Origin: Armatimonadota bacterium
GTDB lineage: Bacteria; Sysuimicrobiota; Sysuimicrobiia; Sysuimicrobiales; Humicultoraceae
Reading direction: 5' to 3'
Length of the DNA stretch: 64,000 nucleotides
NCBI GenBank assembly: GCA_031081715.1
Contig: JAVHMA010000019.1
Coordinates: 1 to 64,000, forward strand
A model generated the notes under the pieces. That model was not told the origin of the DNA and did no database searches. It worked only from the letters and a program-made list of their open reading frames with translations. Position numbers and translations under genes: made by a program. Below, piece after piece: positions 51,296 through 53,834 of the stretch (position 1 is its first letter; each line of letters begins with the position of its first letter).

Positions 51296-51319
51296 ATGTC
51301 TCTATCCAGGAGACGCCTC

Positions 51320-51604
51320 ATGCGGACGGGGCGAGCCGGGGTGCGTGAAGCCAGAGCCCGGCTGAGCCATCTCATTCGGGACGTGCAGCGCGGCGGCCAG
51401 TGGGTGATCACGCAGCATGGGAAGCCGATCGCGCGGCTCGTGCCCGTGGGGGAGGAGTCGCTGTCCCTGGAGGAGCGGATCCGCCGGCTGGAGGAGGCCG
51501 GAGTGCTGGAGCCCCTCGGCCAAGCCCCTCATCCTCTTCCCCCGCCTCTGCCATTGGGGAAGAACCTGGCCCAGCGGTGGCTGCGGGAGGACCGCGACCG
51601 ATGA
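51320..51604 (+). CDS. antitoxin of the Phd/YefM type (VapB partner)
   Basis: This 94-residue protein has the Phd/YefM N-terminal fold (AGVREARARLSHLIRDVQ, then GGQWVITQHGKPIARLVPV), which dimerises and binds DNA. A charged C-terminal region follows, likely to wrap the toxin. The ATG at 51320 is preferred because it has an AGGAG site eight bases upstream; an in-frame ATG at 51296 lies at the edge of the operator palindrome. Its stop overlaps the toxin start by four bases. Confidence 0.88.
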   Translation: MRTGRAGVREARARLSHLIRDVQRGGQWVITQHGKPIARLVPVGEESLSLEERIRRLEEAGVLEPLGQAPHPLPPPLPLGKNLAQRWLREDRDR

Positions 51605-52041
51605 GGCCGCCCCGACAGGGCGTGCTCTACTGGGACAGCTCTGCGGTCCTGTCGCTGCTCTTTCAGGACGCGCACAGCCGGCGCGCGGCGGCCGCGGTGC
51701 GGAAGTCGGCGGTCCACCTGCTCTCCACGCTGGCCTGGGCCGAGGTGCATGCGGTAATCGCCCGGGCCAGGCGAGAGCGTGCCCTGGCTGATGTCCTGAT
51801 CGACGCCGCCCGCGAGGCGCTGGACCGGGGACCGTGGCGGCGGGCGAACATCTCGCCCGAGTGGGGCATGGTCCGCGAGATGGCATCCCGGTGGGCACTG
51901 CGGGGAGCCGACCTGTGGCACCTCTGCGCGGCCAAGACGCTCAAGGCCGACCTGCCAGAACTCGAGCTGCTCACCTTCGACGCACGGCTTCGAGCGGCGG
52001 CCCGGGCGGAGAGGCTCGCCCGTGGCGCCCGCGACAACTGA
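51601..52041 (+). CDS. vapC: VapC-type toxin, PIN-domain ribonuclease
   Basis: This 146-residue PIN-domain protein retains the expected acidic active-site residues: Asp12 (YWDSSAV), Glu48 (LAWAEVH), Asp104 (LRGADLWHL) and Asp127 (LLTFDARL). VapC toxins are magnesium-dependent RNases that cut tRNA or rRNA and halt translation until antitoxin is restored. All four residues look intact, so it is probably active. It is coupled to the antitoxin gene by a four-base overlap. Confidence 0.9.
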   Translation: MRPPRQGVLYWDSSAVLSLLFQDAHSRRAAAAVRKSAVHLLSTLAWAEVHAVIARARRERALADVLIDAAREALDRGPWRRANISPEWGMVREMASRWALRGADLWHLCAAKTLKADLPELELLTFDARLRAAARAERLARGARDN

Positions 52042-52261: not shown

Positions 52262-52468
52262 TTATTTCTTGCGGGTGGAAAGCCCGAATGGCAGATACGT
52301 TGGGCAAAAACCAATGACACTGGTGACGACAAAGGCGACGGCTACAACACCCAAGATGATAGCCGCCAGTCCGGAGAGATTGCCTGTCAAGTAGAGCACA
52401 GCGATGAGAGCGGCAATCACCAGCCGAATGGCACGGTCGAGCGTTCCCATGTTCTTGTTGAGTTTCAT
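52262..52468 (-). CDS. DUF2892 (YgaP-like) inner-membrane protein
   Basis: This 68-residue protein has the DUF2892 pattern: MKLNKNMGTLDRAIRLVIA, then two membrane helices ending VTSVIGFCPTYLPFGL. The CPTYLPFGL end is characteristic. Its role is unknown; members are often linked to rhodanese proteins, none of which is seen here. An excellent GGAGGTGA ribosome site lies just upstream. It follows a 34-residue membrane peptide gene by 18 bases on the same strand. GC is clearly lower than in the flanking regions. Confidence 0.88.
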   Translation of the reverse strand: MKLNKNMGTLDRAIRLVIAALIAVLYLTGNLSGLAAIILGVVAVAFVVTSVIGFCPTYLPFGLSTRKK

Positions 52469-52591: not shown

Positions 52592-53175
52592 CGCTGCCCT
52601 GTTTCTGCGTCGCAGCCCTCAAGAACCGGCCATCTGGCAACCGCGATTCCCTCTTGAGGTCCTTGAGCGCCGTCTCCACCAACGCGCCTTCGGTGCCCAC
52701 GAGCACGAAGCAAGCATGCGACACATAGGCGATGCCGTGAATACCCTGCACCGCAACACTCGATAACTTGCGTTCGAGTTGTCGCCGCTCAGCGCCCCTC
52801 GCAAGCGACTGGTCGGACACTAGCGTCAGCCTTTTCGGGCGCGCGGTCGCAATGTCACCAGCTCGGCACCGAAAACATACCCCGGTGCCCTTTTTCCATT
52901 CGTGGGATCGAGTCTGATCCCGGTGTCGGGATCGAGGAATACGTGATCGTCGCACTCACGGGCCGGAGCCAAGTAGGCGTCACGACAACTTTGGACGTAA
53001 GGACGTCGCGGGAGAGGACGCGGGTGCCCAAAAGCTGAGCGTAGGCGTCCACCTGCTGTGGCGGGACGGAATCGGTGAACAGGGGATGAGTTGCCCAAGG
53101 GCCCATGGAGGCAAGCCAGCGCAGAAGGCTTTGCTTCACAATATCGTAGGAGTCCCCGAGGAACTCGAGCTTCAC
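52584..53175 (-). pseudogene. unknown protein gene split across three reading frames
   Basis: Three consecutive minus-strand frames each carry protein-like sequence that joins end to end. The first runs from a GTG at 53175 (VKLEFLGDSYDIVKQSLL ... VLSRDVLTSK). The second begins near 52990 (RDAYLAPARECDDHVFLD ... YVFGAELVTL). The third begins near 52833 (RLTLVSDQSLARGAERRQ ... ESRLPDGRFL) and ends at 52584. Adding one base near 52984-52994 and one in the AAAA run near 52831-52835 would restore a single frame of about 197 codons. I do not recognise the family. It may be a true pseudogene, or a live gene with base-calling errors. Confidence 0.6.
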
Positions 53176-53262
53176 CTGCCTGCCCCACGTCGTCCGCAGA
53201 ACGGCCCGGCTAAGCGGCCGGGTGACAGCCGGTCCGCTCAAGCCGGTGGTTATCCGTCCCCT

Positions 53263-53496
53263 TCACGCCGACCGACGGTACGGCCGTACCGCCACCAAGT
53301 CGTCGTCCGAAACCGGTCGTACGTCCTGGACGTTCAGGGTGATCAGTGCCTCAGTTCTGCCGGACGCCGTGACGAACTCCACCTCAAGGCCATTGGACTC
53401 GTATACCTGCACCACGACACCCAGGTCACCCCGGCAGAGGTTCCGCTCGGGCAGGTCCCTGTCGAGCACAACGGTATCGAGAATGTGATAACTCAT
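53263..53496 (-). CDS. DUF4926 domain protein
   Basis: This 77-residue protein has the DUF4926 pattern: YHILDTVVLDRDLPERNL, then GDLGVVVQVYESNGLEVEFV and a C-terminal ALITLNVQDVRPVSDDDL. It looks like a small SH3-like beta barrel. Its ATG overlaps the DUF6883 gene stop by four bases, so the two are made together. DUF4926 proteins are often next to small uncharacterised partners, which suggests an antitoxin- or immunity-like role, but this is inference. Confidence 0.82.
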   Translation of the reverse strand: MSYHILDTVVLDRDLPERNLCRGDLGVVVQVYESNGLEVEFVTASGRTEALITLNVQDVRPVSDDDLVAVRPYRRSA

Positions 53497-53834
53497 CTCT
53501 CGCCTCCCGGGTAAGCCGTCACGAACCGCGGGAAGTCCTCGTCCGTGAGGACGACCCACACGCTGACGACCTCGGCCGAGTGGCCTGCGGGCCCGACCAG
53601 CGGTGCCCGGATCTCGTACTTCTGACCGTACGGACTCGTCTCCACCGCCGTTGCCTCTTGGGTCAGATGCTGAGCCCTCAGGTCCGCCTCCAGCCGTTGC
53701 CACTCCTTTCCAGAATAACCCAAACCGAAGAAGAACGCGGCCTTGAATCTACCCACCGGATGGCTCTCCGAGAGAAGATACCTGTGCAGCTTCGCATGCT
53801 CGATCACCGCACGGGCCGCGTTCGGTATCCTCAC
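53493..53834 (-). CDS. DUF6883 domain protein
   Basis: This 113-residue protein matches DUF6883 end to end: an N-terminal IPNAARAVIEHAKLHRYLL helix, then HPVGRFKAAFFFGLGYSG, and ETSPYGQKYEIRAPLVGPAG with VWVVLTDEDFPRFVTAYPG at the end. In larger proteins this domain is found at the C-terminus of secreted polymorphic toxins; here it stands alone with a DUF4926 partner. It starts at GTG 53834. The compact two-gene layout resembles toxin-antitoxin modules, but no activity is known to me. Confidence 0.82.
   Translation of the reverse strand: MRIPNAARAVIEHAKLHRYLLSESHPVGRFKAAFFFGLGYSGKEWQRLEADLRAQHLTQEATAVETSPYGQKYEIRAPLVGPAGHSAEVVSVWVVLTDEDFPRFVTAYPGGER

What the first reader, a model, noticed from the sequence alone, without database searches (positions are those of the whole stretch)
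53263..53834. DUF6883-DUF4926 pair as a possible new toxin-antitoxin or immunity module
Two small proteins of unknown function overlap by four bases in a lower-GC accessory segment, near a classic VapBC operon. DUF6883 is known as a C-terminal part of polymorphic toxins, and DUF4926 proteins resemble small partner proteins. A free-standing pair may be a self-contained module.
Basis: partly seen in the sequence, partly recalled or inferred. Interest (0 to 1): 0.6.

Follow-up and report, generated by a model that had tools for sequence, protein, structure and literature searches.

The report
Widespread RNase-like toxin with SH3-like antitoxin
Two tiny overlapping genes, both annotated only as 'unknown function', form a self-contained poison-and-antidote pair found across many bacterial phyla: the first looks like a tRNA-cutting enzyme used in bacterial warfare and the second its small neutralising partner.

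Summary
Window 53493-53834(-) is DUF6883 and 53263-53496(-) is DUF4926, overlapping by ATGA in a 61% GC island of a 73% GC genome. The pairing is not rare. In Thermales, Planctomycetota and Cyanobacteriales, DUF6883 genomes are nested almost completely inside DUF4926 genomes (18/18, 29/29, 135/137), with the genes adjacent wherever I checked intact copies. In 108 usable loci, DUF6883 is broken beside an intact DUF4926 23 times; an intact DUF6883 without DUF4926 was never seen. Toxin lost, antidote kept is the signature of a toxin-antitoxin pair. DUF6883 models confidently (pLDDT 92.8). Its only significant PDB matches are the CdiA-CT Kp342 toxin (6CP9), a BECR-fold tRNase, and its conserved K15, Y19, H25, R103 and T106 fit that toxin's active site. 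DUF4926 models as an SH3/KOW-like barrel. Most likely: a ribonuclease, probably tRNase, toxin restrained by a small protein antitoxin. Toxicity, substrate and binding are untested; the interface prediction was inconclusive (pTM 0.66). Unexpected: in four loci the antitoxin domain appears fused to a restriction-modification subunit, with the toxin gene directly behind. No paper in the library searched describes the pair.

The parts
53493..53834 (-). Toxin candidate (T): DUF6883, 113 aa, GTG start; predicted BECR-fold ribonuclease. K15, Y19, H25, K31, W93, R103 and T106 all present
   Evidence: Pfam E 6.7e-33; AF2 pLDDT 92.8, pTM 0.84; Foldseek to 6CP9 E 9e-5 to 2.4e-4; residue conservation
53263..53496 (-). 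Antitoxin candidate (A): DUF4926, 77 aa, ATG start; predicted SH3/KOW-like barrel with a C-terminal helix
   Evidence: Pfam E 1.2e-18; weak SH3_13/KOW matches; AF2 plus Foldseek of a homologous T-A chain
53493..53496 (-). ATGA overlap of the T stop and the A start (probable translational coupling)
   Evidence: sequence; a -4 start is available at 50 of 85 tallied T-A junctions

Best explanation
The pair is a free-standing two-gene toxin-antitoxin module. DUF6883 (T) is a metal-independent BECR-fold ribonuclease of the colicin D / CdiA-CT Kp342 kind, most likely cutting tRNA and so stopping translation. DUF4926 (A) is a small SH3/KOW-like protein made in step with T through the overlapping start. 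It binds and silences T, probably by covering the active site. If A is lost or titrated, T is freed. SHOWN computationally: the pairing, its spread across phyla, purifying selection on both genes, one-way decay (T lost, A kept), the T fold and the conserved active-site residues. INFERRED: that T is toxic, that A binds T, that the substrate is tRNA, and that the benefit is stabilisation of an element or defence.
For: 1) Pairing: Thermales T in 18 and A in 23 of 101 genomes, T never without A (P 9e-16); Planctomycetota 29 and 40 of 294, T never without A (P 2e-31), 46 of 50 T places paired and the 4 unpaired ones broken or partial; Cyanobacteriales 137 and 155 of 196, 135 shared (P 8e-24), 30 of 30 inspected loci adjacent. 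80 loci from many phyla show the same module. 2) Decay: 23 loci with T broken and A intact, 0 with T intact and A broken or absent, in 108 loci. In Thermus the carH-ldrP locus has T+A in T. parvatiensis but a deletion of most or all of T with A retained in T. thermophilus AK1, JL-18 and HB27. 3) Fold: the only significant PDB hits are 6CP9 toxin chains, for two different family members. 4) Active site: Kp342 uses K157, Y160, H170, R252, T255 (PMC9086364); the window has K15, Y19, H25, R103, T106, with the same R-x-x-T spacing; K15 and Y19 are 35/35, H25 34/35, T106 28/35 in an HMM-found set. 5) dN/dS medians 0.18 (T) and 0.11 (A). 6) T and A distances correlate, Mantel r 0.75, 0 of 2000 permutations. 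7) T fused to a MuF capsid protein with a weak A-like ORF next. 8) No conserved third neighbour.
Against: No experiment. The T-A chain model has pTM 0.66, which does not establish an interface. Sequence search finds no solved relative; the 6CP9 match is by fold only (TM 0.64-0.71, 19-22% identity). A has no recognisable DNA-binding domain, unlike many type II antitoxins. Some broken T copies may be assembly errors, though these should also hit A. Y19, H25 and K31 conservation is partly selected by the search patterns; avoids this. DUF6883 also occurs inside a ~510-aa Streptomyces protein without A.
Confidence: 0.8

Rival explanations
1. Polymorphic-toxin cassette: the pair is a silent 'orphan' toxin-immunity cassette serving a secreted or phage-borne toxin, not a self-contained intracellular module.
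For: The nearest solved fold is a CDI toxin. One T is fused to a MuF capsid protein followed by a small A-like ORF. BECR domains are common in polymorphic toxins (PMC3482391).
Against: Nearly all copies are stand-alone two-gene units with their own T start and no trafficking domain or neighbouring toxin gene. Patchy, multi-copy, often plasmid distribution.
Confidence: 0.12
2. The pair is an RNA-processing enzyme plus its chaperone or regulatory subunit with a housekeeping or stress role, not a toxin.
For: Both genes are under purifying selection. A has an SH3/KOW-like fold of the sort often met in RNA or ribosome proteins.
Against: Very patchy presence (2 of 43 genomes in its own phylum, 5 of 385 Alphaproteobacteria). 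T decays often while A stays; a working enzyme subunit should not be lost first.
Confidence: 0.06
3. DUF6883 is a BECR-fold toxin that cuts mRNA or rRNA (RelE/HigB- or ColE3-like) rather than tRNA.
For: HigB2 and RelE appear among weak fold hits. The BECR fold covers several RNA targets.
Against: Those hits are far weaker (E 0.1-0.2 against 1e-4). The conserved K-Y-H-R-T set matches the tRNases Kp342/EC3006.
Confidence: 0.25
4. Chance neighbours in an accessory island.
For: They lie in a low-GC segment with other small genes.
Against: Pairing across many phyla in both gene orders, with P from 1e-15 to 1e-31 in each surveyed clade.
Confidence: 0.01

Closest known systems
CdiA-CT/CdiI of Klebsiella pneumoniae 342 (PDB 6CP9), BECR fold, tRNA-Ile(GAU) nuclease
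   Same: Toxin fold (TM 0.64-0.71, the only E<1e-3 hits) and the K-Y-H-R-T active-site set, with R-x-x-T at the C-terminal strand
   Different: No CDI delivery protein. No detectable sequence homology. Partner is a ~75-aa SH3-like barrel, whereas CdiI-Kp342 is a nearly all-beta homodimer of nine strands.
Type II toxin-antitoxin modules with RelE/HigB/BrnT toxins (BECR fold)
   Same: Two small adjacent genes, RNase fold in the toxin, patchy and mobile distribution, inferred protein-protein neutralisation
   Different: Different sequence families; no DNA-binding domain seen in the antitoxin; active site of the colicin D/Kp342 type, not the RelE type
MuF polymorphic toxins of temperate phages (PMC5576092) and PBECR domains (PMC5512222)
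   Same: One family member (Anoxybacillus, L011) is a MuF-DUF6883 fusion followed by a small ORF; BECR fold with N-terminal His and C-terminal Thr
   Different: The window pair has no MuF or other carrier domain; Pfam finds no PBECR match for DUF6883
RM-linked tRNases such as EcoprrI-PrrC
   Same: Works-like comparison only (from memory): a predicted tRNase encoded beside restriction-modification genes in the variant loci L013, L017, L213/L230, L229
   Different: PrrC is an unrelated protein and no antitoxin domain is fused to the restriction enzyme there; the window copy is not RM-linked

Membership tests
Pfam DUF6883 (PF21814) | Profile match above the curated cut-off over full length | tested here: met
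   113.7 bits against 27; positions 1-109 of 110
Pfam DUF4926 (PF16277) | Profile match above the curated cut-off over full length | tested here: met
   66.7 bits against 29.1; positions 2-56 of 57
BECR-fold ribonucleases, colicin D / CdiA-CT Kp342 type | N-terminal helices followed by a four-stranded antiparallel sheet; structural match to a member | tested here: met
   AF2 HHH-EEEE; Foldseek 6CP9 chains E 8.8e-5 to 2.4e-4, prob 1.00; repeated with a second member
BECR-fold ribonucleases, colicin D / CdiA-CT Kp342 type | Catalytic Lys, Tyr, Thr plus His and Arg | tested here: met
   K15, Y19, H25, R103, T106 conserved and in matching order; residue-by-residue structural superposition was not available
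BECR-fold ribonucleases, colicin D / CdiA-CT Kp342 type | tRNA cleavage | not testable with these tools
   Needs biochemistry
Type II toxin-antitoxin system | Two small co-transcribed neighbouring genes, conserved as a pair across lineages | tested here: met
   (adjacency and same strand; transcription not measured)
Type II toxin-antitoxin system | Toxin cannot persist without the antitoxin | tested here: met
   Evolutionary test: 0 intact T without A against 23 broken T with intact A; Thermus deletions
Type II toxin-antitoxin system | Antitoxin is a protein that binds the toxin | tested here: inconclusive
   Chain model pTM 0.66; Mantel r 0.75; no binding data
Type II toxin-antitoxin system | Antitoxin (or complex) autoregulates through a DNA-binding domain (common, not universal) | tested here: not met
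   No DNA-binding transcription-factor family among Pfam matches of 70 antitoxins; SH3/KOW-like only
Polymorphic toxin system | Toxin domain at the C-terminus of a protein with trafficking or delivery domains | tested here: not met
   Window T is a 113-aa stand-alone protein; met only by L011 (MuF)

The most novel reading that the evidence does not exclude
The DUF4926-DUF6883 pair has been built into restriction-modification systems as a dead-man switch. In Rhizobium etli and Agrobacterium pusense plasmids and a viral contig, the antitoxin domain is appended to a complete BPTD_3080-family restriction enzyme; in a planctomycete it is appended to a MAD5-like HsdS. The toxin gene follows directly, overlapping. 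If a phage inhibitor or plasmid loss removes the restriction subunit, the antidote goes with it and the tRNase-like toxin is released.
Probability: 0.35. Interest if true: 0.8.

Novelty: new variant of a known kind. Interest (0 to 1): 0.62.

Why it matters
Two 'unknown function' families that sit in a large share of cyanobacterial genomes (up to about ten copies each) and in many other phyla gain a testable role and a named active site. It would give intracellular toxin-antitoxin modules a colicin D/CdiA-CT-like tRNase paired with an SH3-like antitoxin, a combination I found described nowhere in the library searched. The fusions of the antitoxin domain to restriction enzymes suggest a direct way for one defence layer to guard another.

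Tried and rejected
Single-protein scan of genome contigs with the window T: no relatives, patterns too specific; solved by an alignment of five closer members. Profile search of PDB sequences for T and A: nothing credible. Pfam, PADLOC and NCBIfam scans of 63 T proteins: no second family beyond chance-level hits. Two very long ORFs that seemed to carry T at their C-terminus (L211, L212) looked like spurious high-GC reading frames upstream of normal T starts and were discarded. The single-ORF T-A 'fusion' in L036 looks like a frameshifted T (C-terminal VTAYP lost), so it was not used as a complex model. Alignments A7-A9 misplaced domains or left A without rows; a read-through chain of L081 with homologous in-frame chains aligned properly, but its pTM of 0.66 does not settle the interface. 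Phage records hold no detectable relative by tblastn. No conserved third gene.

Full report
WHAT IS THERE. The stretch 53263-53834 on the minus strand holds two genes: 53493-53834, 113 aa, GTG start, DUF6883 (PF21814, E 6.7e-33), and 53263-53496, 77 aa, ATG start, DUF4926 (PF16277, E 1.2e-18), sharing ATGA. They lie in a 61% GC segment of a 73% GC window. Each family occurs once in this 2.98 Mb genome. About 1.2 kb away on the other strand is a Phd-type antitoxin (51296-51604) with a PIN toxin (51601-52041). Below, T = DUF6883 and A = DUF4926.

HOW OFTEN THEY PAIR. In the window's own phylum (43 genomes held), T occurs in 2 genomes, each time next to A; A occurs in one more. The other genome, G037, appears to be bacterium HR32 (L003 and L080 come from a contig of the same 5,584 bases), which NCBI leaves unclassified. 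Plasmid records show the same pair in Nitrosococcus, Allocoleopsis, Rubrobacter, Thermus, Meiothermus, Tolypothrix and Rahnella. A scan of 84,980 species genomes with a five-member alignment gave 80 loci in Chloroflexi, Cyanobacteria, Planctomycetes, Proteobacteria, Gemmatimonadetes, Acidobacteria, Myxococcota, Bacteroidetes, Verrucomicrobia, Deinococcota and others. Nearly all have A next to T. T first is usual, with a start codon in -4 overlap available at 50 of 85 tallied junctions. Methylobacterium relatives have the reverse order, A first. Whole-genome surveys by family profile agree. Thermales: T 18, A 23 of 101, T never without A. Planctomycetota: T 29, A 40 of 294, T never without A; 46 of 50 T places paired, the other 4 partial or interrupted. 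Cyanobacteriales: T 137, A 155 of 196, 135 shared; 30 of 30 inspected loci adjacent. Alphaproteobacteria: rare, 5 of 385. T and A distances are strongly correlated (Mantel r 0.75, 60 loci, 0 of 2000 permutations), though shared species history contributes to that.

WHICH IS THE TOXIN. Among 108 loci not cut by contig ends, both genes are intact in 77. Three more have an intact T and a divergent but in-frame A. T is broken with A intact in 23, T is broken with A absent in 5, and T is intact with A broken or absent in 0. Under random breakage, by length, about 40% of single hits should fall in A. Thermus plasmids show it in one place: T. parvatiensis has NDUFA9-T-A, whereas T. thermophilus AK1, HB27 and JL-18 lack most or all of T by a deletion while A is retained (in HB27 A then gained an N-terminal insertion). 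Intact copies are under purifying selection, median dN/dS 0.18 for T (30 pairs) and 0.11 for A (182 pairs). A gene that is freely lost while its partner is kept, and that is never kept alone, behaves as a toxin.

WHAT T LOOKS LIKE. AlphaFold2 on an alignment of 63 members gives pLDDT 92.8, pTM 0.84, three helices then four strands. Against 350,542 PDB chains the only matches with E < 0.001 are the four toxin chains of 6CP9, the CdiA-CT/CdiI complex of Klebsiella pneumoniae 342 (TM 0.64-0.71, 19-22% identity); RelE and HigB2 follow weakly. A second member, from Gemmatimonadetes (L081), gives the same top hit. The review PMC9086364 lists the Kp342 toxin's active site as K157, Y160, H170, R252, T255, a Lys-Tyr-Thr triad with a key His and Arg, and says that it cleaves uncharged tRNA-Ile(GAU), with activity stimulated by EF-Tu/EF-Ts. 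The window T has K15, Y19, H25, R103 and T106 in the same order, with the same R-x-x-T spacing. In 34 HMM-found homologues plus the window, K15, Y19 and K31 are invariant, H25 is 34/35, W93 34/35, R103 29/35, and T106 28/35 with two Ser. Sequence searches against the PDB find no relative, so this is membership by fold and active-site pattern, not by sequence.

WHAT A LOOKS LIKE. DUF4926 proteins have sub-threshold similarity to SH3_13 (RecD-like SH3) and KOW. In the modelled T-A read-through chain of L081 the A part is a five-stranded barrel with a C-terminal helix, resembling Abl SH3, NusG KOW and chromo barrels. pLDDT is 92.9 but pTM only 0.66, so the docking is not established. No DNA-binding domain of the usual antitoxin kinds was found.

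OTHER ARCHITECTURES. In an Anoxybacillus plasmid with phage structural genes, T is the C-terminus of a MuF capsid protein and a weak A-like ORF follows (E about 4e-8 with my profile). In Rhizobium etli and a viral contig, the restriction enzyme BPTD_3080 carries an extra C-terminal A domain and T follows at once; the Agrobacterium pusense locus has the same layout in an operon with a DNA methyltransferase. The NCBIfam model NF046055 covers these enzymes up to residue 938 of 1010 and 921 of 988, so the A domain is an added tail. For Agrobacterium the A domain is inferred from matching length and position and was not scored separately. In a planctomycete (L213/L230), A is the C-terminus of a MAD5-like HsdS beside an N6-methyltransferase, and T overlaps it by four bases. 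These fusions are few but involve two kinds of RM subunit. They suggest that loss of the restriction protein could release the toxin.

MOST LIKELY MECHANISM. Shown: pairing, conservation, direction of decay, fold, active-site pattern. Inferred: T cuts RNA, most likely tRNA, when free; A binds T and blocks it; coupled translation from the ATGA overlap keeps A in supply. The window copy keeps every conserved residue and both frames, so it is probably functional. What benefit it brings here (stabilising the island, phage defence) cannot be told from sequence.

COMPARISON AND NOVELTY. It works like a type II toxin-antitoxin module with a toxin of the colicin D/CdiA-CT Kp342 kind. It is not a CDI or other polymorphic toxin in the window, because it has no delivery domain. 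No paper in the searched library names DUF6883; DUF4926 is named once, only as an annotation on a cyanophage contig. The library lacks most subscription journals and preprints, so prior description elsewhere is possible. I rate it a new variant of a known kind.

Noticed in passing
L013:997-4336; L017:904-4306; L229:2816-9399; L230:932-4698 with L213:1406-3534: DUF4926 domain appended to restriction-modification subunits (BPTD_3080-family restriction enzyme; MAD5-like HsdS) with the DUF6883 gene directly downstream.
   Followed up: partly
window 51296-52041 (+): A second, different toxin-antitoxin pair: Phd/YefM-type antitoxin (51296-51604) and PIN-domain toxin (51601-52041), also with a 4-base overlap.
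   Followed up: partly
window 52826-53241 (-): Two overlapping ORFs in different frames just downstream of the pair read like one frameshifted gene; no Pfam match and no plasmid relative found.
   Followed up: partly
window 52262-52468 (-): Small YgaP-like transmembrane protein (PF11127, E 1.2e-19) in the low-GC island.
   Followed up: no
L014:3146-4681 and L018:3152-4678: About 510-aa protein with DUF6883 in its C-terminal half and no DUF4926 nearby (Streptomyces plasmid; a viral contig); role unclear.
   Followed up: partly
L036:4167-5570: Two tandem copies of the pair in a SAR324 MAG, both with a damaged DUF6883 and an intact DUF4926; the second copy reads as one fused ORF, apparently because of a frameshift.
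   Followed up: partly
Cyanobacteriales genomes G837, G880, G1011, G948, G854, G922: Up to 9 DUF6883 and 11 DUF4926 copies per genome.
   Followed up: no
L102:1905-2710 (Nostoc plasmid): DUF6883 and DUF4926 annotated about 240 bases apart, an unusually wide gap; an unannotated DUF4926 copy in between was not checked.
   Followed up: no
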